Below are positions 4,662 through 46,329 of a stretch of 64,000 bases of DNA, piece after piece (positions within the stretch are counted from its first letter, which is position 1; every line of letters starts with the position of its first letter). The stretch is from the NCBI RefSeq assembly GCF_900089955.1, contig NZ_FLQX01000101.1:1-64000 (forward strand), written 5' to 3'. The position numbers were made by a program, and so were the translations under genes. The notes under the pieces were generated by a model. The model saw only the letters and a list, made by a program, of their open reading frames with translations. It ran no database searches and was not told where the DNA came from. The DNA is from Candidatus Accumulibacter aalborgensis (GTDB lineage: Bacteria; Pseudomonadota; Gammaproteobacteria; Burkholderiales; Rhodocyclaceae).

Positions 4662-4840
4662 TTCAAGTGCTATCGGTCGAGTGACCGGAAAGACCGTCAA
4701 ATCACTGCCTTGCGTCAGTTGCGCGGGATCAGGATGGCGAGAAAATTTTTGGCCGACAGGCATGCGGCGTCCCTACAGGTCATCAGGAATTCTCGTGGGG
4801 GGTGGCATGGCGGTGGTGTAAGATGTTCCCCTCCAATCTC

Positions 4841-4850
4841 GGGGGGGGGG
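4841..4850 (+). repeat. G10 homopolymer tract just upstream of a regulator start codon
   Basis: Ten consecutive G residues end 9 nt before the ATG at 4860 and occupy the place of the ribosome binding site. Such tracts are prone to slipped-strand change in length. Here it would alter the spacing or strength of translation initiation rather than the reading frame. It could also be a sequencing-sensitive site. Confidence 0.8.
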
Positions 4851-4859
4851 CAAGATGCC

Positions 4860-6014
4860 ATGAATGACATCGTCGATGACATTGTCGCCGGATTCTACAA
4901 GGCTGCCAGCGGCCAACTGGGTTGGGGCGAGGCGCTCAAGTCCTTCCAGCAACTCACCGACGCCTGGCTCGTGCAGGTTCAGGGGATCGATTATTCTCAG
5001 GTGGCCGTGACCTTCAGCTACGAGGCGGGTCCCTGCCCAGCCGAAGCGGTCTTCGACTACCTGCGCCATTGGCATAAGTACGACCCGCGGGCCAGGCTGG
5101 TCATGGCACTGGGCGAAGGGGAATGGGCCAACTGTCATGAGCATTTCGACGATGCCTTCGTTGCGCGCAGCGCTTTCTACCAGGATTTTCTGATTCCCTA
5201 CGGCGGTCGCTATGTCAGCGGCACGCAACTCTTCTGCCAGGGCAACGAAGTGGTGATGCTCGGCGTACACCGAGGTCGGCATTCACTGCCGCTGAGCGGC
5301 GACGAGATCACCTGCTGTCGACGCCTCGCCAGGCATCTGGCCGAGGCCATGCGTCTATACCGTGCTCAGCGAGAAAAGAAGGCACCGCGGGTGAATCTGG
5401 GCGCCGAGCTGGTGAGCCGCGTGCGAGCGCCGATCGTACTCATCGATGAGCACCGCTATCTGCACCACGCCAACCCCGCCGCGCGCGCGATTCTGGCCAC
5501 CGGCGACACGCTCGTCGAACGCGACGGCCTGCTCGGTTGCCGATCGTCCGGCGACGAGCTGAAGCTCACCATGGCATTGCGCGGACTCGCCCTGGCTAGC
5601 GATTCGTATATCACCGCCAGGCCGGACACGGACAACGCCTTCCTCCACATCGGTCGACCATTGGGCAGACCGATAGGCCTGTTCCTCTATGCCATCCGCC
5701 CCCAGGCCACCATGGGCAGCTTCGGGGGGCAGCCACTGGCCATGGGAATCATTCACGACCCTTCCTCTGCCCGACCCGAGCTGGACCCCTTCGTGGTGGC
5801 CGTCAGTTTCGACCTCACCCCTGCCGAGGCGCGCGTGGCCGTCGCTCTGGCGCGGGGCGCTTCGGTCGCCGACATCGCCGCCGAGCACGCGGTTTCCGCG
5901 CATACCGTACGCAGCCAGGTCAAGGCCGTGCTGGCTAAGACAGGCACCGGCCGGCAGGCCGAACTGGTCAGTCTGCTCGCCGCATTGCCGATGACCGCGC
6001 TTGGCTTGCAGTGA
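4860..6014 (+). CDS. LuxR-family transcriptional regulator
   Basis: The 384-aa protein ends in a LuxR-type helix-turn-helix (about 318-384; LTPAEARVAVALARGASVAD and VSAHTVRSQVKAVLAKTG). The N-terminal 300 residues are a sensor region without transmembrane segments; the middle (VLIDEHRYLHHANPAARAIL) looks PAS-like. The ATG at 4860 is chosen because it follows the purine-rich G tract and gives MNDIVDDIVAGFYKAA, a start typical of this regulator group. It is divergent from nrdJ, with the NrdR-like boxes between, but nothing shows that it controls nrdJ. The ligand is unknown. Confidence 0.8.
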   Translation: MNDIVDDIVAGFYKAASGQLGWGEALKSFQQLTDAWLVQVQGIDYSQVAVTFSYEAGPCPAEAVFDYLRHWHKYDPRARLVMALGEGEWANCHEHFDDAFVARSAFYQDFLIPYGGRYVSGTQLFCQGNEVVMLGVHRGRHSLPLSGDEITCCRRLARHLAEAMRLYRAQREKKAPRVNLGAELVSRVRAPIVLIDEHRYLHHANPAARAILATGDTLVERDGLLGCRSSGDELKLTMALRGLALASDSYITARPDTDNAFLHIGRPLGRPIGLFLYAIRPQATMGSFGGQPLAMGIIHDPSSARPELDPFVVAVSFDLTPAEARVAVALARGASVADIAAEHAVSAHTVRSQVKAVLAKTGTGRQAELVSLLAALPMTALGLQ

Positions 6015-6045
6015 TCGGCAACGCCCACGTGCCCGGACTTCGACC

Positions 6046-9000
6046 CTAGCGCCTCTCCAGGAAGAAGTCACCCCCTGGCTCATATCCCGACGAGAGCAAG
6101 GCAGAATACTGAGGCGTCTGGGGAAATTTCTCGGCATGGATGCGGGCCCTGACGGCAGTGAAGAGATCGTTGCCTTCGACCAGTTTGTCATGCTGAACCG
6201 ACGCGTTGAGTTGCTCGATCAGGCTCCACGCAAAGATGGAGTGGTCCCCTTTGCCTGCGTCATCCACTTCCTCGAAATTGCCGGAGGACATCACCGTGAC
6301 GGCCCGTTTCGCCAGCAACTGGGCGCGACGCGTCTCGACATCGCCCTTCTCGATCTTCCGCTCAACCGCCAGCCGGCCGGAGAAACAGCTATCCGAGACC
6401 AGCATGACCTGCTTGGCGGGAAGCAGTTGCATGAATTTGCCGATATCCGCGTTCGAAACCCAGGTCCGTGGATCACGCGCATTGGCGTCCACGGGGAGCC
6501 AGTAGCCCATCATGTCGCCCGACTGTCGTTCGCGCAGCTCGATCCCGTGCCCAGCATAGTAAAGGAATATGCTTTCATCACGGGCGTGCGCTTCCGCCGC
6601 CTTCTTGAGCGTCAGGATCAGGTCCCTGCGGGTCGCATCACGGACGATGTTGACCTCATAGCCATAGTCGTCCTGCAGGATCTTGCCGATCGCCTCGGTA
6701 TCCGAATACGGCGTGCTCAGGGGATCGACGCCCTTTTTCGGGTCATAGGCCTGATTGGCAAAAAGGTAGGCGACCTTGCGCTGAATCTCGGCCGCCGGGT
6801 TCGCTCCGAACTGCGGTGTTCCCACCGCCGGGATGCACAGCGTCTCCGGGGCGTCTCCTGGTTTGCACTGCGCCAGGTCGGCGAGCGACGGGTTGGTCTC
6901 GAGCATGCTGATCGCGCTGGAAAAACGCTCCTGCCGGTCGGCATAACGCGCGCCGACATAGTTCACAAACGCCGCCCCATTGCCCGCCAAGCTCGAAACA
7001 TTGACCGATTCCGGGCTCACGAAGCGGGCGTTGTTGGTTTTGTCCGCGACGAAAGTCGCGGCCACCTGGGCCGCTTCGGCTGAACTTGCGTCCCTCAATG
7101 CGGTGTCAGACTGGCTACGAACCGTGTAGGCGAGCGCCGCACCGGGGAACACATCCACCACCGCGTTGGACCGACCAATGACGTATTCGTAATTCGTCGC
7201 CGACAGGGTGCCGGCGTCGGTCATCAGCAGCGGTTGAGCGGCGCCCGCACGTAGCGACCCGCTATCCAGGCTGAAGGTCGGCGTACCGTTGACGACCTGT
7301 TCCGCTGTCTCGGCGTTCTTGAAACCCGTGAAGGAGTACTGGAAGGGATCCTTCTGGTCTTCGACTCGGCACTGCGTTTCGGCCAGATTGACCGTCAGCC
7401 TGGCCTTGTCGATGGTGCTGGTCGTGTTGGGGCGGTAGATGTCCTTATTGTTGAAACCTTGGTAGTTGTGACCGCCGTTGCCGTCGTCCACGGTCACGCG
7501 GCCAACGATCACCACCTCTTTGCCCATACCGGCATTCTTGTCCCCGTAGGCAAAGTTGCCTTCGACACGCAACTGGTCGGGGGAATACAGTTGGCCTTCC
7601 ACCACGACTGCCTTCGCCCCCGGCGCCTCCACCGTGCCGTCGTAGGTCTTGACGACGTTGTCCGTGCTGATCTGCAATGGGGCCGGCGTGATGGTCACTG
7701 GCACTATTCCCTTGACATCGCCTGAGGTTCCCGTGTCCACGAGGTAACCGGTCGGAGCAGCGTGGACATCGCCACCGGAAGCGGAATAACTAATGTCATA
7801 GGGAATCACATTTCCATCTTTCATTAGAACATTTCGCAACTTTCCTTCAGTAAGCAACTTTCCCTCAAAAACGATCGCCGGCTTGTTCTTCTCTGCAATT
7901 TCCAGCACTTCATCCACGGTGGTTTCCTTGTATGCAGGCTGGCCCTTGAGCCATTGCTTCGTTAATTGATCTTCTATAGCAGTTCGGCTTGAGGAGAGTT
8001 GGCCTTCGCCTTTCAAGATGTTTTCCACAGGATGCCAAATACCGTCGTACGGTTGGGAAGCGCCACCGACCGTCGGAACATAGGCGACCCGCACAGTGGG
8101 CGTATCCTTGAACAGGTAACGATTACCTGTCTCGGTAACAACCGTAGGTGGAGGGCTGTAACTTCTGTTCCAGAGCGGCTGCTGGTCACTGATCAAGTTG
8201 CCGAAAGTGTTCTTCGCCGGGTCGGCGCTGGCGCTGTATACCAGCCAGCGGCCGGGGGTCGTCGTCACGCTCGCGCCCTTATTGACGAAGTAGCCACCAC
8301 TGGCAGCAGCCAGCACCAGCGCATCGCCGCTGCCGCTGGCAGTCAATTTGGCGTTGTTCAGCAGGACGATGTTGCCACCCGAAGGCCCTTCGTTCACCGC
8401 CGTGATCCGGCCCGCCGTAATGGTGCCCAGGGTGATGTCACCGCTCGAGGCAGCATTGCCGGTACGCCCCTCGCCGCTGGCGATGGTCATGCTGACTGTG
8501 CCGGTTCCAGCGTCGATCGTGCCGTTCATGGTAACCACGGCCGGTCCGGGGCCACGATTGGCCGGAAAGACGCCATTATTGGCGTTGGTCTCATTGGCGT
8601 TGGCCTCGTTGGCCACGACTTTCAGATTGCCATTGTCGGTGGTAATGGAAGCGTTCACGAGCACGCTGCGGCCGGCCTGCAAGGTCAGGTCGCCGCCATT
8701 GCCGGATGGGTTATTGACCGTGACAGGGGCCTTGACCGTAAGGTCGTTGTTGGCCTGCAGGGTGAGTTGGGCGCCGGTCGCCAGAAGATTACGCACAGCG
8801 GTGGCCGAGATGGTATTCGTCTCGGATGGATTGTCTCTGAAACGCTGACTGGTCACTGATGGAGGGATTTCACCCGTGCCCGGATAAAGACGGAACAGCG
8901 ATACTACATTCCCACCGTAGGCATCGCTGCGTGGATTGCTCCAACCAACAACGAAGAGTGGGCTATCCCCTTCACCCACGGCAACTCCGGTGATCTGGGA

Positions 9001-11625
9001 ATAATCGGCAACGCCCTTCGGAATCAGATGCGGTACGTCTACCCAGTTTCCAAGGCCAAAATGGATTCCTCCCTTCAATGGAAGGCCTGAGGAGTCCATC
9101 TCGTCGAGAGATGCGAAGGAATCGAGGTTAATGCTGTTGCGATAACGGCTGCTGAATAAAAGGAATTTCCCGTCGGCAGAGATACCCACAGGTCCGCACA
9201 AATTATCAATATGGCAGCCTGTGACACTGGAGCGTGGGCCGTCGTAGGGCGGAGAAATTCGGGCGATCTCTTCACCCTGATTAAGGTACTCAAAATTGTA
9301 GAAGAGATTGCCGCTAGAATCGGCTGCGACATACGGGCCGATTCTGTCGTTGCCGATTGGCAACGCAGTAATAATTCTCTTTAGTGAGAGGGGGACTGCG
9401 CTATTGGGTTGTTCGTCAAATTGATAGATTTGACCTCTTCCTTCTGAACTGCTGACAAAAAGCCGGTGAGATTGCTCCTCGCCGGAAAGGGCGACGCCCA
9501 AGCCAAAGTTCCCAGCCGAGGCATTGCTGCCATTTGCGTAAAGTTGTTGGACTGGTTTGAAGTCTTTGCACACGACTCCAACCAATGCAATACAAGGATC
9601 ACTCACGCTCTTGTACACGTAAGCCGTGCCCCGCACACCGTTCTTGCCAGCGGAACTAGGCGCACCTACTGCCACGTACTGTCCGGGTCTGTCGATGGCC
9701 ACAGACTCACCAAAGCGTGAACCGCTCTCAATGACTCCGTCCGTGGTTGGAAAAAGACGTTTCAGCAGAGCAGCCCCCCCGGCGACACTCGGGTTATCCG
9801 GATCGATGTGGTAAATATATGCCGTATCCTCCTTCGGACTGCCGATCACCAGTGTTCCGGTCGGTTGGCTCAACGCGACACTGGGCTGGGCATCTGCCGT
9901 TCCGCCCCAGGCGAGGCCGTTGATATTGCGCACGACGGTTTGAGCGGGATTGTCTCCTTCGACGCGGAACGCCAGATCGTACTGGGTAGCCGTAGTCGTT
10001 GGCTGTGTGGCAATGTCGTCGATAATCAGATCCTTGGGATCGAGCAGAACCTGCCCCCCCGACCCGGCATTCAGCCTGGCCGTGGTGGTAAGCTCACCGG
10101 CCGACGAGACTTCGATTCGCCCCCCTTTTCCGACGGTGCCGCTCGCCTCCGCCTGACCGAGCATCGTCGTTCGCTGATCCGACCAGACCACGACCTCGCC
10201 GCCCGTTCCCGAATTCGCTTTGGCGGACAGCCGAGTGGTGTCGTTGATCGCGACGACCTGGGCATTGCGTACTTCATCGACTGCAGCACCCTTGCCGCCC
10301 TGCCATTCTCCGCCCACCCGCAGCTGTCCGCCGGCGGTTTCGCCGTTGGCTTGCACATTGGCCGACAGCAACTGCACGAAATCAGCCGTGACGCTGATAG
10401 CGCCGCCCGCGCCGGCGCTCCCGTCGGACTGGATACTGGCGGACGAAACCAGTTGTTGCCCGCCATCGATGGTCACCGTGCCACCCGAAACGCCGGAAGC
10501 ATTGATCTGCGTCGACTGGGTCTGCCAGAGATCCTTTGCTGCCGCGACCAGCACCTGGCCACCGGAGCCGCTGGAGCCGACCGCCGAGAGAAGGCCGCCG
10601 GTGGTGATGTCGTTGCCGGTGACGCGAATGTCGCCCCCCTTGCTGCCGTCCGCCGAAATCCGGCCAGCCGTGTAGATCGAGTCACCGGCAATCTCGATGC
10701 GCCCACCTGGCCCGGCGCCATCGGCCCGGACTTCGCCGATGTTGCGGACGAGGTCCCCCCGCAGGACAATCCGCCCGCCCTCGGCAGTCAGGCTGCTGGC
10801 GCTGACGATGCCCTCGTTGTTCACCGTCGCACCGAGCAACTGGTTGGCCGCAGCGGTGCTGATGATCACCTGGCCACCGCCGACGTCAACGAGGTTCTTG
10901 TTGTCGATCAGCGCGGCCATGGTGGCCGGATCGACAGTCAGGCTGGTCAGCCGGCTACCCGAAAATTCAAGCGTCACCTTGTCCCCGGCGGCCATCGCCA
11001 CGGTACCCATCCTGGCAATCAGCGCGCCCTCGTTGCGAACTTCGGGTGCCAGCAGCGCCAGATAGCCTCCGTCGGCCGCTGTCAGCGTGCCAAGATTCTC
11101 GACCTTGCCCTTGGCGCCGTTGCGCTCGAACAGATAGCGACCGGCGAGGAAATTCTCGTCGGTGATGTTGAGTGTCGAGGCGGTCAGACCGCCGACATTG
11201 ACCGAGGCGCTGCGACCAAACAGGACGCCATTGGGGTTCACCAGAAAGACCTGCCCGTTGGCATTGAGCCGGCCGTAAATCTGGGTGGCATCCTGCCCGA
11301 CGATGCGGTTGAGGGCGGTGGCGCTGGCCCCGGGCTGAACGAAATTGACCGTTCCCTGGCTGCCGATGTTGAAGCTTTGCCAGTTGGCGATCAGCTTCTG
11401 TGATTGCTGCCGAATGTCCATGGTATTGCCGGAGGCGCTGATGGCCCCTTTTCCCGCCGTGATCTGCCCGCCTTGGGGCAGTTCCGTGGGTCCGACGGGT
11501 CGCAGGTCGACCGCCGCCGTCGTCAGGCTGCCAAAGGCAGACAACACCGCCAGCGCTGTCTGGCTGAGCGGGAAGCCTTGCCGGCTTGATGGGGTCGTGT
11601 GACGGTGGTCTGAGAAAGTAGGCAT
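6046..11625 (-). CDS. Two-partner secretion exoprotein with C-terminal caspase-like peptidase
   Basis: This 1859-aa protein has a TpsA/filamentous-hemagglutinin secretion domain near the N-terminus (about 35-300) with the hallmark NPNGVLFG at 130-137. A long beta-helical, Gly/Ala-rich stretch follows. Next is a region with repeated GSP/GAP-type blades (VIGSPKEDTAYIY, AVGAPSSAG) suggesting a propeller, then MBG/YDG-like domains. The C-terminus (about 1617-1859) is a peptidase C14 caspase-like domain with the dyad His1693 (YYAGHG) and Cys1747 (SDSCFSG). The start at 11625 follows CGGAG; the upstream TTG lacks a good site. The tpsB partner lies immediately upstream on the same strand. An exported caspase is unusual. 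Confidence 0.9.
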   Translation of the reverse strand: MPTFSDHRHTTPSSRQGFPLSQTALAVLSAFGSLTTAAVDLRPVGPTELPQGGQITAGKGAISASGNTMDIRQQSQKLIANWQSFNIGSQGTVNFVQPGASATALNRIVGQDATQIYGRLNANGQVFLVNPNGVLFGRSASVNVGGLTASTLNITDENFLAGRYLFERNGAKGKVENLGTLTAADGGYLALLAPEVRNEGALIARMGTVAMAAGDKVTLEFSGSRLTSLTVDPATMAALIDNKNLVDVGGGQVIISTAAANQLLGATVNNEGIVSASSLTAEGGRIVLRGDLVRNIGEVRADGAGPGGRIEIAGDSIYTAGRISADGSKGGDIRVTGNDITTGGLLSAVGSSGSGGQVLVAAAKDLWQTQSTQINASGVSGGTVTIDGGQQLVSSASIQSDGSAGAGGAISVTADFVQLLSANVQANGETAGGQLRVGGEWQGGKGAAVDEVRNAQVVAINDTTRLSAKANSGTGGEVVVWSDQRTTMLGQAEASGTVGKGGRIEVSSAGELTTTARLNAGSGGQVLLDPKDLIIDDIATQPTTTATQYDLAFRVEGDNPAQTVVRNINGLAWGGTADAQPSVALSQPTGTLVIGSPKEDTAYIYHIDPDNPSVAGGAALLKRLFPTTDGVIESGSRFGESVAIDRPGQYVAVGAPSSAGKNGVRGTAYVYKSVSDPCIALVGVVCKDFKPVQQLYANGSNASAGNFGLGVALSGEEQSHRLFVSSSEGRGQIYQFDEQPNSAVPLSLKRIITALPIGNDRIGPYVAADSSGNLFYNFEYLNQGEEIARISPPYDGPRSSVTGCHIDNLCGPVGISADGKFLLFSSRYRNSINLDSFASLDEMDSSGLPLKGGIHFGLGNWVDVPHLIPKGVADYSQITGVAVGEGDSPLFVVGWSNPRSDAYGGNVVSLFRLYPGTGEIPPSVTSQRFRDNPSETNTISATAVRNLLATGAQLTLQANNDLTVKAPVTVNNPSGNGGDLTLQAGRSVLVNASITTDNGNLKVVANEANANETNANNGVFPANRGPGPAVVTMNGTIDAGTGTVSMTIASGEGRTGNAASSGDITLGTITAGRITAVNEGPSGGNIVLLNNAKLTASGSGDALVLAAASGGYFVNKGASVTTTPGRWLVYSASADPAKNTFGNLISDQQPLWNRSYSPPPTVVTETGNRYLFKDTPTVRVAYVPTVGGASQPYDGIWHPVENILKGEGQLSSSRTAIEDQLTKQWLKGQPAYKETTVDEVLEIAEKNKPAIVFEGKLLTEGKLRNVLMKDGNVIPYDISYSASGGDVHAAPTGYLVDTGTSGDVKGIVPVTITPAPLQISTDNVVKTYDGTVEAPGAKAVVVEGQLYSPDQLRVEGNFAYGDKNAGMGKEVVIVGRVTVDDGNGGHNYQGFNNKDIYRPNTTSTIDKARLTVNLAETQCRVEDQKDPFQYSFTGFKNAETAEQVVNGTPTFSLDSGSLRAGAAQPLLMTDAGTLSATNYEYVIGRSNAVVDVFPGAALAYTVRSQSDTALRDASSAEAAQVAATFVADKTNNARFVSPESVNVSSLAGNGAAFVNYVGARYADRQERFSSAISMLETNPSLADLAQCKPGDAPETLCIPAVGTPQFGANPAAEIQRKVAYLFANQAYDPKKGVDPLSTPYSDTEAIGKILQDDYGYEVNIVRDATRRDLILTLKKAAEAHARDESIFLYYAGHGIELRERQSGDMMGYWLPVDANARDPRTWVSNADIGKFMQLLPAKQVMLVSDSCFSGRLAVERKIEKGDVETRRAQLLAKRAVTVMSSGNFEEVDDAGKGDHSIFAWSLIEQLNASVQHDKLVEGNDLFTAVRARIHAEKFPQTPQYSALLSSGYEPGGDFFLERR

Positions 11626-11682
11626 GGCGAACTCCGTGGCGGACAAGGGATTGAAGACGCTGACCGGAAAATGACCGGCTAA

Positions 11683-13485
11683 TCAGAAGAAATACGAGAG
11701 GTTGGCCCAGAAGCGCGGGTCGCGCTTGAGTCCGTCGGAATCGGTCCCGTTCACGTTGCGCAAGGGGTTCTCGCCGATCCGCCAGGCCACCGCCGCGGCA
11801 AGGTTGAAACGGCCCGGTTGCGTGTAATAAAGGCCAAAACCGGCGCCGTACAGACTGACATCGTTATGCGTGGAAGGAACGCCGGAAGGCACTTCGTGCA
11901 GTCTGTGGATGTGTCCCCCATCGACGAAAGCCGAGCCCACCACCCCTCCGAACATGCGGTAGCGCAGCTCGATATTGGCCAGGATGCCTTGATCACCGGC
12001 AGCCTCGCTGACGGGGTAGGCGCGCACGCCGAAGGGTCCTCCGAGGGTCATCTGCTGCGAGGTATCCAGGTTCGTGAAGGCGTACTGGCCGCTGCCCGAC
12101 AACGACCAGGTCAGGTTTTCGGTGAGCCGCCGCTGATAGCTGGCGGCGGCGCTGATCTTGGTGAAATTGCCCTCGACCCCGGACGGATCGACCTGGACGA
12201 AACCCACCGAGTTTCCACAGCCGGGAAAGCTGAAAGTCTGTCCGGGACCAAAGCGGACGGAACCGCTGGTCAACTGCCCGCTACCGGTCAGGAAAGAATC
12301 CGAGACACCGTCGAGCCGGTCGAAAGCCAGGCCGATCTGCATGAGGTCGACGTCCTTGTCAGTCAGTGGAACACAATCGCTGGTCGCCGTTGCCTTTAGT
12401 TTCAGGTGCTCGTAGCGTGCCGAAGCGTACAGATTCTGGTTTCCCGAGCGCACGATCGGATAGCTCAGGCCGGCAAAATAGGTGGTCGACGTTCCTTTTA
12501 CATTGAGCGAAGCGAACTGTTCACCCAATCGGTAGTCAAGTTCGGACGCTCCGAGCTGCAGACTCAGGCCATCGTAGCCGATGGGCGTCGCATAAATGAG
12601 GCTGCCATAGGTGTTGACGCGTGAGTCGACGAACATTCCCATCGCATTGAGCGTCGCCGAGCCGCCTCGGCCGTCGACGTTGTTTAGCCTGATGAGCGCA
12701 CTCAATTGGTTCTGGCCCACAGAGCGGGTGCCAAAGTTGTCGGCATTGATGCTGCCCGCTACGAAAGGCAATGGCCGAACGTAGATGTTCTCATCAGTCA
12801 ACCCGGGATCGGCGCCCGGCTGCAACGCAGAGCGAACGTCTATGCCGCCGAAGTCATTGAGCAGGAGCATGCTCCGCTCCAGTTCGGGAATCCGGATAGG
12901 CTCTCCCTCTTGTTGCCGAGCCAGGAGGGTGTTGCGGACCCTTTCGGGTGGAAAGCGTACGTCGTCGCCAAGTTGAATGTTGATCACACCAAGCCTTCCC
13001 TCCAGGACAACCAGCCGAACGACACCGTCCGTGATGTCCTGCTCGGGAATAAGGGTTCGCGCGACGTAGCCCTGGCGAGCGTAGCTGGCGGTAACGACCT
13101 GAACCTGGCGAATGAGTTCGGGCAGGGTCAAGGATCGCCCGATCATGGGCCTGAGCAACTCCTGGAGTTCCTCTTGCGGCAATAGCGTGACGCCATCCAA
13201 GCGAAAACCCTGCACGAGAATTGAAGCCTCCAGGTGCTCGGGGCCCAGTTTGTCTGGCGGTGGCTGGGTGGTCACCGGGGGTGGAGCTTTGGTGCTCTCG
13301 CGTTGCTGCTCACGCTGCTCGCGCTGTTCCGTCTCCTGGATATTCCTCAACACCGCCCCAGGGTCCGGGGCAATGACCCTGGGCAATTGTTGTGCTGACG
13401 CAGGCGGAACGACCGACAATGCCAAGCCAGCCAGCACAACAGTCCGAGCCGTCCGGGAAGTCCGGATTTCTTTCTTGATTTTCAT
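11683..13485 (-). CDS. TpsB outer-membrane transporter (ShlB/FhaC family)
   Basis: TpsB proteins are 16-stranded outer-membrane barrels that recognise the TPS domain of their partner and thread it to the cell surface. This 600-aa protein has a signal peptide (VVLAGLALSVVPPASAQ), a Gln/Arg-rich and proline-rich linker (about 40-85), and POTRA-type domains (about 95-250; VQGFRLDGVTLLP, YARQGYVARTLIPEQDI). The C-terminal barrel ends in an aromatic residue (FWANLSYFF), as usual for outer-membrane proteins. The start at 13485 has AGGGAT upstream. It lies 57 bp before tpsA on the same strand, so they are very likely one operon. Confidence 0.92.
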   Translation of the reverse strand: MKIKKEIRTSRTARTVVLAGLALSVVPPASAQQLPRVIAPDPGAVLRNIQETEQREQREQQRESTKAPPPVTTQPPPDKLGPEHLEASILVQGFRLDGVTLLPQEELQELLRPMIGRSLTLPELIRQVQVVTASYARQGYVARTLIPEQDITDGVVRLVVLEGRLGVINIQLGDDVRFPPERVRNTLLARQQEGEPIRIPELERSMLLLNDFGGIDVRSALQPGADPGLTDENIYVRPLPFVAGSINADNFGTRSVGQNQLSALIRLNNVDGRGGSATLNAMGMFVDSRVNTYGSLIYATPIGYDGLSLQLGASELDYRLGEQFASLNVKGTSTTYFAGLSYPIVRSGNQNLYASARYEHLKLKATATSDCVPLTDKDVDLMQIGLAFDRLDGVSDSFLTGSGQLTSGSVRFGPGQTFSFPGCGNSVGFVQVDPSGVEGNFTKISAAASYQRRLTENLTWSLSGSGQYAFTNLDTSQQMTLGGPFGVRAYPVSEAAGDQGILANIELRYRMFGGVVGSAFVDGGHIHRLHEVPSGVPSTHNDVSLYGAGFGLYYTQPGRFNLAAAVAWRIGENPLRNVNGTDSDGLKRDPRFWANLSYFF

Positions 13486-13540
13486 GGGGATCCCTAGCTT
13501 GATCGCTGACAATCAAGTGTCGATCACCTTGAAAACCGGC

Positions 13541-13562
13541 GCATCACCCAAATGGGTGATGC
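13541..13562. promoter_or_regulatory. Perfect palindrome upstream of tpsB
   Basis: Ten-bp perfect arms (GCATCACCCA and TGGGTGATGC) flank a central AA. The site lies 56 bp upstream of the tpsB start and 58 bp after the stop of the MaoC-PTA gene. It could be an operator for the tps operon. On the minus strand it is followed by a short GGTTTTC, so a weak terminator for the upstream gene is the alternative. Confidence 0.6.
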
Positions 13563-13620
13563 CAGTCCGGGAGAGTGCTTGTGGATGCCGGCGGCAGCCG
13601 GCTTCATCAGGCGGTGCGCT

Positions 13621-36544: not shown

Positions 36545-37465
36545 ATGGTGGTCGCTGCCATGTCCACGCTCCTGTGGGCGGCGACCACCGCGCGTGCGGG
36601 GACCGAGCGCTTCGACTACGACGCTCTCGGCCGACTGGTTCGTCACCTCGACTCGTCCGGAACAGTCACCGAGTACGCCTACGACGGCGTCGGTAACATC
36701 CTGGAGGTGCGCGGGTCGAGCAATGCCGGTCCACCTACCGTCGGCAGCGTCGTGCCGACCGCTGTGCGGCGTGGTCAATCGGTGCGGCTCGAAGTCAACG
36801 GCAACTGGCTGTCCGGTGCCCGCGTCACCACTTCCGACCCCGAACTGAACATCAGCAACGCCCTCACCTCGGCAGTGACCGGTGCCAGCTTCACGCTCAC
36901 GGCGTCTGCCGCCGCTGCACTCGGCGCCAGGGTGTTCACGCTATCGACCTCGCGCGGGAGCGCGATCTTTTCGCTGATGATCGATCCGCAAATGCCAACG
37001 GTGAGCTTTGCACCCTTTCCCGACGCGCTGGCTGCGGGTCAGTCGCAGCAGGTGACGATCATCTTGTCGAATCCCGACCAGGTGGCGCATACGCTCACGC
37101 TCGCCATCGCGAACCCCGCCGTCGCATCGGTTTCACCTGCGAGCGTCACCTTCCCACCCGGCCAGACGCAGGCCAGTGTCAGCGTCTCGGCAATTGCTTC
37201 GGGCACTACTCTCTTGAACGCCCGTTCAGCAACGCTCGCGCCGGCCGAACTCGCTATTTATGTCTCGGCGCCGGTCGCGGGTGCGAGCAGCGCCTACGCG
37301 CCGATGGTGGGAGTCTTGCGACCCGAGGCCCCGGGTGGTGGAGCGAGTTCGATCGGGCCGTTTACGGCGCCGAATGTGGGTCTCTTCCGACCCGAGGCTC
37401 CGGGCGGCGTGGGCAGCCTGATCGGCCCGATCGTCGCGCCAGACGTCGGCGTGAACCGCGAGTGA
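36545..37465 (+). CDS. Exported protein with YD (RHS) repeats, Ig-like region and C-terminal 23-aa repeats
   Basis: The 306-aa protein starts with a short signal-like segment (MVVAAMSTLLWAATTARAG). Two YD/RHS-type repeats follow (FDYDALGRLVRHLDSSG, VTEYAYDGVGNILEV), then a TIG/Ig-like domain (about 65-220). The C-terminus has two 23-residue tandem repeats (LRPEAPGGGASSIGP and FRPEAPGGVGSLIGP). The YD repeats are normally part of far larger RHS proteins, so this looks like a stub. The nearest strong Shine-Dalgarno (GAGGAGGGA) is about 27 nt upstream of the ATG, so the true start is uncertain. The next gene begins 33 bp after its stop. Confidence 0.65.
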   Translation: MVVAAMSTLLWAATTARAGTERFDYDALGRLVRHLDSSGTVTEYAYDGVGNILEVRGSSNAGPPTVGSVVPTAVRRGQSVRLEVNGNWLSGARVTTSDPELNISNALTSAVTGASFTLTASAAAALGARVFTLSTSRGSAIFSLMIDPQMPTVSFAPFPDALAAGQSQQVTIILSNPDQVAHTLTLAIANPAVASVSPASVTFPPGQTQASVSVSAIASGTTLLNARSATLAPAELAIYVSAPVAGASSAYAPMVGVLRPEAPGGGASSIGPFTAPNVGLFRPEAPGGVGSLIGPIVAPDVGVNRE

Positions 37466-39588: not shown

Positions 39589-42500
39589 ATGAGCAGCCAC
39601 GAGTACGAGTGCGATCGTCTTGCCGCGAGGCGATCATCGGCGTTCGCGCGCGCCCTGCTCGCCACGCTGCTGGCCGCCTGGTGGTCACTTGCCGGCCTGC
39701 TGCTGGCGGCCTGTCCGGCCTGGGCCGCGCCGAGCATCGGCAGCGTGCAGCTCACGCCGACGACGATTGCCGCTGGCACGCCGACGACCGTTCGCGTCAC
39801 CGCCGTGATCACCGATCCGACCGTCATTGCCTCGACGGTCAACCTGCAGCGCCTGAACGACGCCGGCGCAGCGGTCGCGGTGCTCGGCGCGCTGCACGAT
39901 GACGGAGCGAACGGCGACGCCGTCGCCGGTGACCACGTCTACACCCTTGATGTCCAGCTCACCGAGAGCGCGCCAGTGCGGCTGCGCGTATCGGCAGGCT
40001 TCAAGGGAATGTTGAAGCGCCTCTTCTCGGCCGAAATGCTGCTCAACATCAATCGCCCGCCGGTCGCCGACGCCGGGCGCGACCGCGACGTCGCCACCGG
40101 CACCGACGTCGAAGTCGATGGACGCCTGTCCAGCGATCCGGACGGCGACCACCTGGCGTATCTGTGGACGCTCGATGAACGCCCGGCCGGCAGCAGCGCC
40201 GAACTCAACGGCGCCGACCGCGCGCGGCCGGTGTTTTTCGCCGACCAGCCCGGCGACTACCTCCTGAAACTCGTTGTCAACGACGGCAAGGTCGACAGCG
40301 CGCCGGCCTTCGTTCGCGTCCACGCCAGCGCGACCAATGCGCCGCCGACCGCCGATGCCGGACCCGACCAGAACGTTCCCACCGGCGCGTCGATCCGCCT
40401 CGACGGCCGTGCCAGCCGCGACCCGGAGAATGCTCCTCTTGGCTATGCCTGGGAACTCGTCGACAAACCGGCATCGAGCGCTGCCGTGCTCGACGACCCC
40501 ACCTCCGCCACGCCGGGCATCCGCGCCGACCTCGCCGGTCGCTACGTGCTACGCCTGACCGTCAGCGACGGCAACACGACCAGTACGCCCGACGAGATCG
40601 TCGTCACCGCCTACGCCGCCAACACGCCGCCGACCGCCGTGCCGGGGCCCGATCAGAGCGTCGCGCCGGGAACTCGCGTCGACCTCGACGGCTCGGCGAG
40701 TTTCGACCCGGACCCCGGCGACGGAATCGCCCAGTACGCCTGGGGCTTCGTCGCGCTGCCGCGCGGCAGTACGGCCGCCTTGCTGCCGCAGATCCAGGTC
40801 TTCCCCAATCCACCGCTGACTTCCTTCGTCGCGGATCTCGCCGGTGATTATCTGATTGAGCTCGTCGTCACCGACCAGCGGGGCGCGAAGAGCGCGCCCC
40901 GCCGACTGCTGGTCCAGGCCGGGGCGCCAGACGCGCTCAAACCAGCGTTGACGCGTCTCGTTCCCGACCGGGCGGTCGCCGGATCGGCTGCTCTCGTCCT
41001 CGGCGTCGAGGGCTTGCGCTTCGACCCGGCGGCGCAAGTGCTCTTCGGCACGACGCTGCTCAATACCCGCTTCATCAGCGCCACACGCCTCTCGGCCGAC
41101 ATCCCGGTGCCACTGCTCGCGGCGCCGGGTTCACTCGCCGTTCTGGTTCGTAACCCGGCGTCCGCCGGCGGTGATTCCAACAGCCGCAGCTTCAGCATCA
41201 CGCCGGCGACGCCGATTCTGAACGTCGTCACCCCCGCCGTGCTCGAAGTCGGCCAGGCAGAGACGCTGGCGCTGGGCGGCGCCAACTTCACCCCGGCGTC
41301 GAAAGTGCGCTTCGGCGCCACCCTGCTCGCCACGAGCTTCGGCAGTGCAACGAACCTGAGCGCGCTGGTCCCCGCGGCGCTGTTGAGCGCGCCGGGCACC
41401 GTGTCCGTCTCTGTCGTCGATCCGGTGACCGGAACGTCGAACGCGATCGACGTGACCGTTGGCACCCAGCTCAAGATCACCACCATCTCACCCGCCGAGG
41501 GTCCGCCGGGAACGCTGCTGACCATCGACGGATCGGGTTTCGTCCCGACCGCCGGCGGCAATCAGATCAGAATCGGCGCCACGCCGGCAGGCGTCGTCAG
41601 CGCGGCGACGACGCGCCTGACAGCAACGGTTTCGCTCGCTGCCCAGACCGGAGCGGTGACGGTGACGACCGCGCGCGGCACGGTCAGCGGACCGACTTTC
41701 ACCGTCAGGCACGAACAGGATTTCGAGATCGTCGCCAGTCCCGCGGAACTGATCACCCTCTCTGGCGGTGTCGCGTCACTGATGGTCCAGTTGGCCAGCA
41801 GCGGGGTGAAGCCATTTGCCGGTGTGGCGCAACTCTCGGTCGCCGGTCTTCCTGCGGGCGTCGTCCCGACTTTCTCGACCCCGGCGCTCGCCGCCGGCCA
41901 CACAGGGAGCCTCGCGCTGGCCGTCCCCGCGGCGCTCGCCGCCGGCACCTATACCGCGCGCATCGATGGCGCCGCGATGATCGATGGTGCGGCGCAGAGC
42001 AAGAGCGCCACTTTCAGGCTCAAGGTCATCGGTGCCGCCAGCGCCGGCAGCAGTGGCGTGGCGGGGCGCTTCGTCGACCTGCAGGGCCGCGGCATCGCCG
42101 GAATCATCGTCCGCGCCGAGGACCCGAATGCTGCCGGGACGAATCTGGCGCTCACCACCAGCGACGCCGGCGGTAACTTCGTTCTCGCCGGTCTGCCGGC
42201 CGGCAAGATCACGCTGCGCATCGACGCGACGCCAGCCAATCCGGGTTTTCCGATCTGGCCGTTCACCCTCGTCCTTGAAGCCGGCGCGGTGACGCCGCTT
42301 TCCGACTGGGTGGTGCAGCCGCCGCCGCGCGACGACCTGTTCAGGCCGCTGGTCGCCAACGCCAGCGAAGATCAAGTGTTCACCAACCCGGACGTACCGG
42401 GGTTGTCGGTACGCGTGCCGGCCGGCGTCGCGATTCAGGGCTGGGATGGGGTGGTGAAGTCGCGAATGGCGATCGAGCGCGTCGCTCCCGACAAGCTGCC

Positions 42501-45500
42501 GACCGAAGCCGTGCCGAACGGCGCGAAGAACTACTACCGCATCTCTTTCGGAACTCCTATGGGCGGCGTGCCGATCAATTCCGGCAACGGACCTTCGGCG
42601 GTCTTCGTCACCGCGCCCAACGACATGGGCCTGCAGCCCGGCGAGAAGGCCGAGCACTGGTATTACTACGGCACACCGCTGGCCGGCGAGGGTGGCTGGC
42701 GCAAGGCCGGCACCGGTACCGTCTCGGCCGACGGCAAGACGATCAGCGCCGATACGGACTCCGGAATCGACCGCTTCTGCGGCGTCTGCGGCTTGTCGTG
42801 CTTCACGGTTCCCTGGACCAACCCGAGTCCGCCGTGCCCCGATTGCAACGGCAACGGTCCGCCTGCCACGGCCGGCAAGCCGGTGACGCTGGCGATGGGA
42901 ATGGAACTTTCGAGCGCGGTGGACATGGTCATCGACGGTGTGATGCCGATCACCATCGGCCGCAGCTATTACCCGTGGAACGCCTTCATCAGGAACGCGG
43001 CGCTGTCGTCGAGCCTCGGCAATGGCTGGATTTTCAGCTACGACTGGATCGTCTATGTCGATCCGAGCACGGGTGAACTGCGGCTGGTCCTTCCCGGCAA
43101 CGCCCGCGGTGTCGTGTTCACGCCGAGCGGAGCCAACACTTACGAAGCGCCGAATGACCTGCGCTTCGGTGGCGCGAAACTCGTTTCCGGCGACGGCTGG
43201 CAACTCAAGTTCAAGGACGGCCGCGTCTGGCGCTTTCGGCAGATCGGCTTCGTGAGCTGGCTCGTCGAACAGCGCGACGCCAACGGCAACGTGTTGCGCA
43301 TCGAGCGCAATGACTCGGGGCGGCCGACGACGATCACCGCACCGGGCAAGACGGTGGCGATCGGCGTCGACGCGAGCAGCGGACCCATCGAGGTGGTGCG
43401 CGATGCTGCCGGGCGCGAGGTGCGCTACGGCTATGCTGGCGGCCGGCTCGCGTTGGTGACCGCGCCGGATGGCGGCGTGACGAGCTACGGCTACGTCATC
43501 CCGTCGCCACCGCAGGTCACCAGCGTTGGCACGGTGGGCTTCTCGTCGTCGTATCCCAACCGCGCGGACGGGCCGATCTACATTGGCTCGATCTCCCGGC
43601 CCGGGACGACGCAGCCTCTGGCACTCGACTACGGCGAGAGTTTCCGCGTGCTGCGCCAGCACGCGAGCAACTGGGATATCCGCTTCGCCTACGAGCTGAG
43701 CGGCACCTGTGCCGTCCAGGGGCCGCTGGCCGTGGGACACTGCGCCGGGGGCAATGGTCCCACAGTGGACTCCCTCGAAAACCGCGCGGCCGGCTGGCAC
43801 TTCCTCGGCGGGGAAGTGATCGCCACCCGTGTCTATGACGCCAACGGCAACGGCTACACGGTCCGCTTCAACGCCGGCGGGCTGGGCACCGAACTGATCG
43901 ACGCCGATGGCCAGAGCACGAAATTCGAGCGCGACGGGCGCAACCGCATCACCAGGATCACCGACCCCCTCGGCCGTGTCACGCAGTACGCCTACGACGG
44001 CAACAGCAACCGCACCCAGATCGTCGATGCCGCCGGTCGCAGCACCGATCTCGCTTACCATCCGATGTGGAACAAGGTGACCGGCATCACCCGCAAGCTG
44101 GCCGACGGAACTCCGGTCAGCTATCGCTTCGAGTACGAGGACTCGGAGGCGAGCGGCGGCAAGCTGCTGCGCGCCATCGACCCGCTCGGCAATGTCAGCC
44201 AATACAGCTACACCGACGCTGGCGGCGCCAGGGGGCTGCTGCAGAAAGTGACCGACCCGCTGGGCAACGTCACGACGCTGGCCTATAACCCGGCGGCCGA
44301 CCTCGCGGCAGTGACCGACGCGCTCGGCAACTCGGTCGAGTTCCAGCGCGACGTCGTCGGACGCCTGCAGCGCGTGACCGACGCGGTAGGGGCGAGCACC
44401 TTCAGCGAATACAACCGGCTCGACCAGGTGACGACGATCACCGACGCCAACGCCGGCGTCACGCGCTTCAACTACGACGCCAAGCGCGACCCGACCGCGG
44501 TAATCGACCCGCTCGGCCGCGCCGTCGAGTCCTACATTAGCGACGACATGCACCACCTGACGCGCCGCACCGATGCCAAGGGCGGCGTCGAGACCTACGA
44601 CTACGATAGCGCGAGCCGGCTGCTCGCCGCCACCGATCGCAGAGCACAGCGGGTAAGCCTCGAATACGACCGCCAGAACCGCGTCGCGAGCATCACCTAC
44701 GCCGCCGGCGGCAACGAGCGGCGTGACTACGACGCGGCCGGTCGGCTCGTCCGCATCCGCGATCAAGTAGGCACGATCGCCTTCGACTACGACGACGTCG
44801 ATCGACTCAAACGCGAGGCCACCGACGTGGACGGGCTGGTCAACACCATCGACTACGAGTATGACGCCCTCGACCGGCGAATCAAACGGACGGTGAACGG
44901 CATCGACCCGACGACCTACGCCTACGACCTCGCCTCGCGGCTGACGACGATAGTCTACCGCGGCAGAACGGTGAGCTACGAGTGGGACAAGGCCTCGCGC
45001 CTGACCGCCAAGGTCCTGCCCAACGGCATCCGCCAGGAGTACGCCTACGACAAGGCCAGCCGACTCGTCGAAATCCGCTTCCGCAAGTCCGACGGCACGC
45101 TGATCGATTCGATCGCCTACGCCTACGATCCGAACGGGCGCCGCGTCGCACGAACGATGAACCTGCCGACCAACGTCGAGACGCCTATGCAGGGCACGTA
45201 CGACGAAGCGAACCGGATGACCAGCATCACCTTCCCGGCCACCGGGCAGACCTGCGCGCTCGCCTACGACGCCAACGGCAACCTGGCGAGCAAGGCCTGC
45301 CCCGGCGGGACGACGACCTACACCTGGGACGCGCGCGACCGCCTGGTCGCCATCGCTGGTCCGGGCCTGACCGCGAGCTTCAAGTACGACGCGTTGGGCC
45401 GGCGGGTGCAACGCGTGGTCAATGGGCTGAGCACCGGCTATCTCTACGACGGCGTGCAGGCGCTCGCCGAGTTTGGCGCCAACGAGGCCGCGCTGCTCAC

Positions 45501-46329
45501 CGGGCTGGCGATCGACGAAGCGATCGGGCGGTTTGCGGCGAGTGGGGACAGGACGATGCTGACTGATGCGCTGGGCAGCGTGGTGGCCGAGACGCGGGCG
45601 GATCAGAGCATTGCGACGGCGTATGGGTATAGCCCGTATGGGGAGACGGTGCGGAGCGGCGAGGATAGCGGGAACTCGACGCAGTACACCGGGAGGGAGA
45701 ATGATGGGACGGGGATGTATTACTATCGGGCGAGGTATTATGAGCCGGGCTTGAAGCGCTTTGCTTCTGGTGATCCCATTGGAATCGTTGGCGGAGTCAA
45801 TCACTATCAGTATGTCGGTTCCTCTCCTACGAACTTTCGCGACACCCTTGGCTTGACAGCGGATGACAGTTATGAGGTTCATACTCGTAACCCAAGTGCA
45901 AAGCCAAGCGATTCTGCCTATCAAAGCTTTTTCTCATACCTCTTGGAGATGTGGGTCCACGAATCCAATCACTTTGGCGACGGCTCCTACAACCCGGAGC
46001 TTCGAGCCTATTTGAACCAATCTCCCTACATCTGTGATCCAACATCCGATTGGTATGTGGAATTGCATGGGATGCAAAAGATGAACGCGTATTACGTGCT
46101 TCGACTGGGTGCCATTTATTATGCCCAGACGAGACTGTTGTCCGATTTGTTCGGCTATGTGAGGAACAAAACAGGCTCGCAGACAGAGGGACCGTTTGAG
46201 CAAGACCTCGTGGATGATTCTCCACTAGATCTAACATGGTGGCGGCCACCCCGTAAAGATGATCCAGAGTCTCGGGACAAGGCTGGTGGCCAATGCGCTG
46301 TAGTCCAGCCATGTTCGCGTCGCCGGTAG
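39589..46329 (+). CDS. Giant Sec-exported RHS-repeat protein with PKD and TIG domains
   Basis: The 2246-aa protein begins with a signal sequence ending at PAWA-APS. Next are a beta domain (about 50-150), three PKD-type domains (from about 155, 250 and 345: NRPPVADAG, NAPPTADAGPDQ), three TIG/IPT domains (from about 451, 542 and 628), and a carboxypeptidase-regulatory-like domain (about 824-905). A DUF6531-type start lies near 1098, YD repeats at about 1440-1940, and the RHS core at about 1985-2085 (DALGSVVAETRAD, YYYRARYYEPGLKRF, DTLGL). About 157 unique residues follow the core. Most RHS toxins lack a signal peptide, so export route and role may differ. No immunity gene follows directly. Confidence 0.9.
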   Translation: MSSHEYECDRLAARRSSAFARALLATLLAAWWSLAGLLLAACPAWAAPSIGSVQLTPTTIAAGTPTTVRVTAVITDPTVIASTVNLQRLNDAGAAVAVLGALHDDGANGDAVAGDHVYTLDVQLTESAPVRLRVSAGFKGMLKRLFSAEMLLNINRPPVADAGRDRDVATGTDVEVDGRLSSDPDGDHLAYLWTLDERPAGSSAELNGADRARPVFFADQPGDYLLKLVVNDGKVDSAPAFVRVHASATNAPPTADAGPDQNVPTGASIRLDGRASRDPENAPLGYAWELVDKPASSAAVLDDPTSATPGIRADLAGRYVLRLTVSDGNTTSTPDEIVVTAYAANTPPTAVPGPDQSVAPGTRVDLDGSASFDPDPGDGIAQYAWGFVALPRGSTAALLPQIQVFPNPPLTSFVADLAGDYLIELVVTDQRGAKSAPRRLLVQAGAPDALKPALTRLVPDRAVAGSAALVLGVEGLRFDPAAQVLFGTTLLNTRFISATRLSADIPVPLLAAPGSLAVLVRNPASAGGDSNSRSFSITPATPILNVVTPAVLEVGQAETLALGGANFTPASKVRFGATLLATSFGSATNLSALVPAALLSAPGTVSVSVVDPVTGTSNAIDVTVGTQLKITTISPAEGPPGTLLTIDGSGFVPTAGGNQIRIGATPAGVVSAATTRLTATVSLAAQTGAVTVTTARGTVSGPTFTVRHEQDFEIVASPAELITLSGGVASLMVQLASSGVKPFAGVAQLSVAGLPAGVVPTFSTPALAAGHTGSLALAVPAALAAGTYTARIDGAAMIDGAAQSKSATFRLKVIGAASAGSSGVAGRFVDLQGRGIAGIIVRAEDPNAAGTNLALTTSDAGGNFVLAGLPAGKITLRIDATPANPGFPIWPFTLVLEAGAVTPLSDWVVQPPPRDDLFRPLVANASEDQVFTNPDVPGLSVRVPAGVAIQGWDGVVKSRMAIERVAPDKLPTEAVPNGAKNYYRISFGTPMGGVPINSGNGPSAVFVTAPNDMGLQPGEKAEHWYYYGTPLAGEGGWRKAGTGTVSADGKTISADTDSGIDRFCGVCGLSCFTVPWTNPSPPCPDCNGNGPPATAGKPVTLAMGMELSSAVDMVIDGVMPITIGRSYYPWNAFIRNAALSSSLGNGWIFSYDWIVYVDPSTGELRLVLPGNARGVVFTPSGANTYEAPNDLRFGGAKLVSGDGWQLKFKDGRVWRFRQIGFVSWLVEQRDANGNVLRIERNDSGRPTTITAPGKTVAIGVDASSGPIEVVRDAAGREVRYGYAGGRLALVTAPDGGVTSYGYVIPSPPQVTSVGTVGFSSSYPNRADGPIYIGSISRPGTTQPLALDYGESFRVLRQHASNWDIRFAYELSGTCAVQGPLAVGHCAGGNGPTVDSLENRAAGWHFLGGEVIATRVYDANGNGYTVRFNAGGLGTELIDADGQSTKFERDGRNRITRITDPLGRVTQYAYDGNSNRTQIVDAAGRSTDLAYHPMWNKVTGITRKLADGTPVSYRFEYEDSEASGGKLLRAIDPLGNVSQYSYTDAGGARGLLQKVTDPLGNVTTLAYNPAADLAAVTDALGNSVEFQRDVVGRLQRVTDAVGASTFSEYNRLDQVTTITDANAGVTRFNYDAKRDPTAVIDPLGRAVESYISDDMHHLTRRTDAKGGVETYDYDSASRLLAATDRRAQRVSLEYDRQNRVASITYAAGGNERRDYDAAGRLVRIRDQVGTIAFDYDDVDRLKREATDVDGLVNTIDYEYDALDRRIKRTVNGIDPTTYAYDLASRLTTIVYRGRTVSYEWDKASRLTAKVLPNGIRQEYAYDKASRLVEIRFRKSDGTLIDSIAYAYDPNGRRVARTMNLPTNVETPMQGTYDEANRMTSITFPATGQTCALAYDANGNLASKACPGGTTTYTWDARDRLVAIAGPGLTASFKYDALGRRVQRVVNGLSTGYLYDGVQALAEFGANEAALLTGLAIDEAIGRFAASGDRTMLTDALGSVVAETRADQSIATAYGYSPYGETVRSGEDSGNSTQYTGRENDGTGMYYYRARYYEPGLKRFASGDPIGIVGGVNHYQYVGSSPTNFRDTLGLTADDSYEVHTRNPSAKPSDSAYQSFFSYLLEMWVHESNHFGDGSYNPELRAYLNQSPYICDPTSDWYVELHGMQKMNAYYVLRLGAIYYAQTRLLSDLFGYVRNKTGSQTEGPFEQDLVDDSPLDLTWWRPPRKDDPESRDKAGGQCAVVQPCSRRR
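39633..40080 (+). repeat. Diverged duplicate of the RHS N-terminal region, shared with 46605-47040
   Basis: From about 39633 to 40080 the sequence matches 46605 to 47040 with an offset of roughly 6961 to 6972 bp. Shared runs include GACCGTCCGCGTGACCGCC-type codons, and the encoded proteins share APSIGSVQ and VSAGFKGMLKR. The two RHS genes therefore use the same export and N-terminal module, with different C-terminal ends. Confidence 0.8.

What the first reader, a model, noticed from the sequence alone, without database searches (positions are those of the whole stretch)
6046..13485. Caspase-like peptidase carried as the C-terminal tip of a two-partner-secreted giant protein
The sequence shows a TpsA-type secretion domain (NPNGVLFG), a long beta-helix, a propeller-like region and MBG domains, then a complete C14 domain with His1693 and Cys1747. 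Its TpsB transporter lies directly upstream. Caspase-like peptidases in bacteria are mostly cytoplasmic and often in defence or regulated proteolysis. Export to the cell surface would put the protease outside, possibly for contact-dependent attack, self-release of the filament or matrix processing. I know no well-described system with this arrangement.
Basis: partly seen in the sequence, partly recalled or inferred. Interest (0 to 1): 0.72.

Follow-up and report, generated by a model that had tools for sequence, protein, structure and literature searches.

The report
Caspase-like protease on surface-export fibre
A bacterium carries a gene for a long export fibre that ends in an intact caspase-like protease; the same fibre-plus-protease build is found in other bacteria and seems to have arisen more than once, so it looks like a real but unstudied type of exported protease.

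The parts
11683..13485 (-). tpsB: TpsB/FhaC-type outer-membrane transporter (POTRA_2 + ShlB barrel); ORF open to TTG 13512, ATG at 13485
6046..11625 (-). tpsA-C14: 1859-aa TpsA with C-terminal caspase domain; ORF open to TTG 11646, ATG at 11625
10741..11478 (-). TPS secretion domain (P0001 residues 57-302) with NPNGVLFG
9613..9729 (-). FG-GAP_2 repeat, weak (P0001 640-678)
7459..7689 (-). YDG domain of the stalk (P0001 1320-1396)
   Evidence: 37.6 bits against cut-off 25
7186..7398 (-). possible MBG_2 domain, below cut-off (P0001 1417-1487)
   Evidence: E 0.035
6835..6999 (-). helical pre-domain (in the model) and Cys pair C1594/C1604, shared with stand-alone exported-looking C14 relatives
6100..6780 (-). 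Peptidase_C14 caspase domain
   Evidence: His in 61 of 61 aligned rows
   Evidence: Cys in 61 of 61 aligned rows
4710..6014 (+). LuxR-type regulator-like gene, convergent with tpsA, inside the same insert (GerE match 22 bits, just below Pfam's cut-off)
4717..13620 (.). insert (tpsB, tpsA-C14, LuxR-like gene) between the ribonucleotide reductase gene and the MaoC-PTA gene; left edge between about 4663 and 4717, right edge between about 13620 and 13640, by relative

Best explanation
TpsB exports TpsA through the outer membrane by two-partner secretion; the beta-rich TpsA forms a stalk that carries an active caspase-type cysteine peptidase at its C-terminal end. Outside the cytoplasm this tethered enzyme cleaves proteins on or next to the cell surface, probably after Arg or Lys. 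It behaves as an enzyme that is carried on a fibre, not as an exchangeable toxin tail. Shown by computation: gene pair, domains, fold, conserved catalytic residues, purifying selection in relatives, recurrence, more than one TPS lineage, insertion in this species. Inferred: export, Arg/Lys preference, activity, action on outside proteins.
For: TPS + C14 in one ORF next to a TpsB gene. Caspase fold. H1700, C1754, D1752, D1649 in 61 of 61 aligned rows; TbMCA2's described S1 pocket includes Asp95 on helix 1 and Asp211 (PMC4357240, passages), and D1649 lies on helix 1 of the model and D1752 in the DSC loop. dN/dS 0.05-0.24 in the C14 domain for 5 of 6 close pairs, the sixth saturated. Fusions in four places of the TPS tree, 5 label changes at least in that tree, 3 forced by well-supported branches, one clade rejected. 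Related C14 also on DUF4347 proteins and in stand-alone proteins with signal-like starts. At least two Cys within 110 aa before the domain in 39 of 40 TPS-type rows and 14 of 15 stand-alone rows, 0 of 6 others, as fits an oxidising compartment. Stalk type varies (YDG repeats, FG-GAP repeats, coiled coil) while TPS and C14 stay. TPS and C14 identities correlate in 28 main-class rows (Spearman 0.586, 0 of 2000 permutations as high).
Against: Nothing here shows secretion or activity. The window copy sits on a long C14 branch (1.37) and departs at near-invariant positions (1641, 1793, 1836, 1848, 1853, 1855), so it may have drifted. All dN/dS pairs are main-class relatives, not the window gene. 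The C terminus of some TpsA proteins is known to stay periplasmic (CdrA tail, PMC5422565 passages), so 'outside' is unproven. The substrate is unknown.
Confidence: 0.5

Rival explanations
1. Self-processing: the caspase tail cuts its own stalk or a neighbour copy to mature or release the fibre, as processing peptidases do in other large exported proteins.
For: Caspase-clan domains are described as processing peptidases of toxins and surface proteins (PMC3482391, section 11); FHA and CdrA are released by proteases (PMC5422565, passages).
Against: In 32 of 32 fused ORFs C14 is the last domain, with 1-21 residues behind its match; described processing versions usually lie just upstream of a toxin domain. 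Stand-alone relatives have no fibre to cut.
Confidence: 0.2
2. CDI-like or polymorphic-toxin effector: the C14 tail is delivered into neighbouring bacteria and kills by proteolysis.
For: C-terminal position; caspase domains proposed as toxins in other secretion routes (PMC3482391); part of the group lies beside T6SS genes. In the window's own TPS class C14 sits among TpsAs without it, as a swapped tail would. Many other loci do have a same-strand gene behind tpsA, and small or fast-changing immunity genes (under 80 aa, or below E 1e-6) would be missed by my clustering.
Against: In the window the next gene is convergent. Behind the fusions I saw no family in 4 or more loci except the T6SS-linked ones and a Big_5 protein in 4 loci; a 165-aa family follows in one kin pair, L073 and L076. 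No pretoxin domain at E 0.01. Main-class tail not seen to be shuffled: of 14 close TPS domains 12 have C14 in frame and 2 have it on another contig; 0 of 23 genomes with weaker TPS matches only have a tail at E 1e-60.
Confidence: 0.12
3. The tail stays in the producer's periplasm and acts there, for example in envelope stress, with the fibre outside as sensor or anchor.
For: Stand-alone relatives have cleavable-looking signal stretches and no surface module; C-terminal retention is known for CdrA; T6SS phosphorylation-pathway genes beside part of the group.
Against: No retention element was tested; the T6SS link is absent for the window locus and the other fusions outside the main class (0 of 4).
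Confidence: 0.12
4. Inactive or decaying fusion in this species.
For: Long branch and changed near-invariant positions; no close copy found in the rest of the genus.
Against: Uninterrupted 1859-aa frame, intact dyad and fold.
Confidence: 0.06

Closest known systems
Two-partner secretion proteases (LepA of Pseudomonas aeruginosa)
   Same: TpsA protein listed as a protease (PMC5422565; PMC6555100; passages seen)
   Different: 'caspase' has 0 hits in both reviews and 'cysteine protease' 0 hits in PMC6555100; that LepA is not of the caspase fold is recalled
Tox-Caspase of polymorphic toxin systems (Zhang et al. 2012, PMC3482391; section 11 and passages read)
   Same: Caspase-fold peptidase as the C-terminal domain of large exported proteins
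   Different: Listed routes are T2SS, T6SS, T7SS, PVC and TcdB/TcaC, not T5SS; its Table 1 lists only HINT as protease for T5SS toxins. Imm36 and Imm57 are listed with Tox-Caspase there; I searched for no named immunity family
Orthocaspases / bacterial metacaspases (C14)
   Same: YYAGHG and DSC dyad motifs, caspase fold, DSC-loop and helix-1 Asp
   Different: Three surveys gave 0 hits for hemagglutinin and MBG terms (PMC3501461, PMC4933709, PMC8283722); common partners in PMC3501461 are WD40, TPR, Sel1, FGE-sulfatase, NACHT (section 8 read). Supplementary tables were not seen
CdiA/CdiB contact-dependent inhibition
   Same: TpsB + giant TpsA with an enzymatic C-terminal domain
   Different: No pretoxin domain found, no gene in the immunity position in the window, no tail shuffling seen in the main class
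CdrA/FHA-type adhesins
   Same: TPS domain and beta-rich stalk
   Different: Their release proteases are separate genes (passages); that they carry no caspase domain is recalled

Membership tests
Two-partner secretion (type Vb) TpsA | N-terminal TPS domain with NPNG motif | tested here: met
   (PF05860 6.7e-41; TIGR01901 1.3e-24)
Two-partner secretion (type Vb) TpsA | Cognate TpsB (POTRA + barrel) encoded next to it | tested here: met
Two-partner secretion (type Vb) TpsA | Sec signal peptide | tested here: inconclusive
   hydrophobic N-terminal stretch seen by eye only
Two-partner secretion (type Vb) TpsA | Secretion by the TpsB partner | not testable with these tools
   needs experiment
Peptidase family C14 (caspase/metacaspase/orthocaspase) | Caspase fold | tested here: met
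Peptidase family C14 (caspase/metacaspase/orthocaspase) | His-Cys dyad in the HG and DSC motifs | tested here: met
Peptidase family C14 (caspase/metacaspase/orthocaspase) | Acidic S1 pocket (metacaspase/orthocaspase type) | tested here: inconclusive
   D1649 and D1752 in 61 of 61 rows, equated with TbMCA2 Asp95/Asp211 by position in the model, without a direct alignment to TbMCA2
Peptidase family C14 (caspase/metacaspase/orthocaspase) | Peptidase activity | not testable with these tools
   needs experiment
CDI / polymorphic toxin (T5SS) | Cognate immunity gene directly downstream | tested here: not met
   window only: the gene behind tpsA is convergent and LuxR-like. In relatives inconclusive: a same-strand gene often follows, without a family common to most
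CDI / polymorphic toxin (T5SS) | Pretoxin domain (PT-VENN, DUF637) before the tail | tested here: not met
   Pfam at E 0.01 finds only TPS, C14 and FG-GAP_2; the pretoxin names are from PMC3482391 Table 1
CDI / polymorphic toxin (T5SS) | Exchangeable tails on one TpsA backbone | tested here: inconclusive
   not seen in the main class; in the window's class C14 sits among TpsAs without it

The most novel reading that the evidence does not exclude
Bacteria have repeatedly mounted an extracytoplasmic caspase on unrelated export stalks (several TpsA lineages, DUF4347 proteins, stand-alone forms) to make a contact-range proteolytic weapon or sensor; in Nitrosomonas, Nitrosospira and kin this works together with the T6SS kinase-phosphatase-Fha pathway, so surface proteolysis and T6SS firing are coupled.
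Probability: 0.12. Interest if true: 0.82.

Novelty: new variant of a known kind. Interest (0 to 1): 0.56.

Why it matters
It would add the type Vb pathway to the routes by which caspase-fold proteases may leave bacterial cells, and places such a protease in ammonia oxidisers and other Betaproteobacteria. Bearers whose records are not marked as metagenome-assembled (Nitrosospira briensis Nsp8, Nitrosomonas sp. Nm84, Paucibacter sp. DJ2R-2 with the whole fusion; Rubrivivax rivuli and Massilia sp. MS-15 open at the 5' end of the stretch) make it testable. It also bears on whether bacterial caspase relatives work mainly in cell death inside the cell.

Tried and rejected
Rejected: a chance fusion or assembly join (open 1859-aa frame, 31 other fused ORFs). 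Rejected: one TPS lineage for all fusions. The first AU test (p 1.8e-6) used labels in which locus L023 (genome G035) was wrongly counted as lacking C14; the error was found, L023 was replaced by L125 in the tree, and the test repeated on that tree rejects one clade again (p 3.4e-7). That tree needs 5 label changes, of which well-supported branches force 3; one of the 5 is L033, a TpsA without C14 inside the main clade. The place of the window among the other TPS rows is an unresolved fork. L044 (genome G030) is labelled 'noC14' but its C-terminal end runs off a contig, and L134, a C14 tail of the same genome, begins at the edge of another contig, so the two may belong together; with L044 unlabelled the count stays 5, as C14 it is 6. 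L052, L053 and L057 also run off their stretch; unlabelled, the count stays 5. Unresolved: whether the window's C14 came from the main fused class or was recruited separately; the C14 tree does not decide (p-AU 0.717).

Led nowhere: single-sequence model of the presumed propeller, residues 534-926 (pLDDT 35); paper searches with narrow phrases (0 hits); direct repeats at the insert ends (longest 8 bases). A T6SS explanation for the window locus: its genome has one T6SS_FHA_C hit, on another contig; the PP2C gene at 60950-61729 is about 47 kb from the operon. The VIA list covers model residues 78-327; the helical pre-domain was not tested alone.

Limits and rows dropped: most 'noC14' rows in the TPS tree are loci cut close to the TPS match; their label rests on no C14 tail at E 1e-30 being listed for those genomes, where at most 5 candidates per genome were scored, or on a read ORF. 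They were picked by likeness to the window's TPS. In the C14 tree I left out L093, one L081 ORF, L059, L054, second C14 ORFs of L049 and L050, and own-genome rows L001-L006. The seven 5'-open loci and L134 are counted as main class by their C14 only.
Full report
Check of the observation. The two genes lie on the minus strand: tpsB 11683-13512 (ATG 13485) and tpsA 6046-11646 (ATG 11625), 57 bases apart. Pfam gives TPS (6.7e-41) and Peptidase_C14 (2.9e-23) on TpsA and ShlB/POTRA_2 on TpsB; YDG passes its cut-off, MBG_2 does not, FG-GAP_2 is borderline.

Relatives. Searching 150 genomes with the whole protein and reading 19 fetched regions gave three further fusions with TpsB directly upstream: L041, L042, L043. 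A scan of genome contigs with their tails gave 35 loci: 22 hold TPS and C14 in one ORF beside TpsB, 7 are open at the 5' end, 6 have no TPS. Of those 6, four were scanned with Pfam: two of four Magnetococcales proteins (DUF4347 + C14), one Myxococcota protein (LpoB + C14), one Afipia protein (WD40 + C14). A profile search of 398 genomes, the window's own among them, found 38 with a close tail (E 1e-30); reading 18 more regions showed 8 further fusions, two with TpsB downstream instead of upstream. In all, 32 distinct ORFs carry both domains, and 9 of the 398 genomes have at least one (G000, G030, G035, G105, G106, G212, G227, G230, G240). Stand-alone C14 proteins, without TPS, were read in 14 other loci and in L129.

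Lineages. In the TPS tree 28 fusions fall in one clade (with one TpsA lacking C14, L033), while the window, the pair L125/L128, and L133 lie apart among TpsAs labelled as lacking C14. The tree needs 5 label changes; 3 are forced by well-supported branches. One clade for all fusions is rejected (p-AU 3.4e-7). In the C14 tree the main class is one clade (90/83) and the window is a long branch outside it, yet a joint clade is not rejected (p 0.717 on an earlier tree). In 199 relatives of G105 the 14 best TPS matches (58% identity or more) are in 14 of the 15 genomes with a C14 tail at E 1e-60; the fifteenth, G045, has a stand-alone copy. Twelve are in the same frame; in G421 and G452 TPS and C14 lie on separate contigs. 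None of the 23 genomes with weaker TPS matches only is listed with a tail. So in the main class head and protease appear to be inherited together (also Spearman 0.586).

Constraint. His, Cys, Asp1752 and Asp1649 are in 61 of 61 aligned rows. C14 dN/dS is 0.05-0.24 in 5 of 6 close main-class pairs; one pair was saturated. At least two Cys lie within 110 aa before the domain in 39 of 40 TPS-type rows and 14 of 15 stand-alone rows, but 0 of 6 others. The window copy departs at several near-invariant positions.

The window locus. The MaoC-PTA neighbour is matched at 81-94% identity in 25 of the 27 other same-genus genomes searched, and at about 54% in the other two. TpsB has no match above 37% there, and no other same-genus genome is listed among the 38 with a close tail. 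Of six relatives fetched, four (L153, L154, L155, L157) have the ribonucleotide reductase and PTA genes next to each other, 22 to about 360 bases between the matches; the other two (L156, L158) match only the PTA side, so the reductase gene is not next to it there. Window 4717-13620, with edges uncertain by tens of bases, is thus an insert with tpsB, tpsA-C14 and a LuxR-like gene; GC is 0.607 for 4700-13620 against 0.626 for the window.

T6SS neighbours. Genes for Fha (T6SS_FHA_C), PP2C phosphatase, Ser/Thr kinase, TagF, IcmF or TssA lie within the fetched flanks of 10 of 36 main-class loci (L042, L064, L066, L067, L068, L074, L078, L083, L094, L132), 0 of 4 fused loci outside it, 1 of 10 TpsA loci without fused C14 (L058), and 0 of 14 stand-alone C14 loci. 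Query proteins came from some of these loci and flank lengths differ. Five of the ten (L042, L064, L067, L068, L094) are close kin, L074 and L078 are another kin pair, and L074, L078 and L083 rest on a single T6SS gene each, so the count is not ten independent events. Five of nine genomes with the fusion have no T6SS_FHA_C match, so the fusion does not need that T6SS gene.

Mechanism. I commit to a tethered, exported cysteine protease acting on proteins at the surface (0.5). Arguments for and against a CDI toxin are in the rival list. The place of the C terminus is the main gap.

Novelty. Zhang et al. 2012 (PMC3482391; section 11 and table passages) list caspase toxins for T2SS, T6SS, T7SS, PVC and TcdB/TcaC, not T5SS, and only HINT as protease of T5SS toxins. 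Two type V reviews have 0 hits for 'caspase' and name LepA as a TpsA protease; a T5SS-T6SS review has 0 hits for 'caspase' either. Three surveys of bacterial caspase homologues have 0 hits for hemagglutinin terms. The library holds open-access papers only, listings were capped and supplements were not seen, so prior description elsewhere is possible. I rate it a new variant of a known kind.

Noticed in passing
L042, L064, L066, L067, L068, L074, L078, L083, L094, L132: T6SS genes (Fha, PP2C, kinase, TagF, IcmF or TssA) lie beside TPS-C14 genes, in several gene orders.
   Followed up: partly
L087, L088, L089, L090: Magnetococcales proteins of 1265-1581 aa with a related C14 tail; L087 and L090 scanned: DUF4347 at the head, Big_5 repeats in L087.
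   Followed up: partly
L047-L051, L131, L135-L142: Stand-alone C14 proteins, 322-457 aa except L131 (691 aa); L047-L051, read in full, have signal-like starts and a shared R..L..NP.AADVP.C stretch.
   Followed up: partly
G212 (L126, L127, L128, L135): One genome with three TPS-C14 fusions, two in the main TPS clade and one outside it, plus a stand-alone C14.
   Followed up: no
L060 (=L041), 5021-10921: Much of the stalk is a KAEAEAKKAEAE-type coiled coil instead of beta repeats, with TPS head and C14 tail kept.
   Followed up: no
L044 and L134 (both genome G030): A TpsA that runs off one contig edge and a C14 tail that starts at another contig edge: possibly one split gene. Left unjoined.
   Followed up: partly
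window 39589-46326: 2246-aa RHS protein with PKD and TIG domains, with RHS pieces at 36545-37462 and 46502-48079.
   Followed up: no
L059 2519-4129: A more distant exported-looking C14 gene directly downstream of a TpsA gene without fused C14.
   Followed up: no
own genome G000: Nine C14 matches in one 4.7 Mb genome; six of seven non-window ones read begin with a signal-like stretch, by eye.
   Followed up: partly
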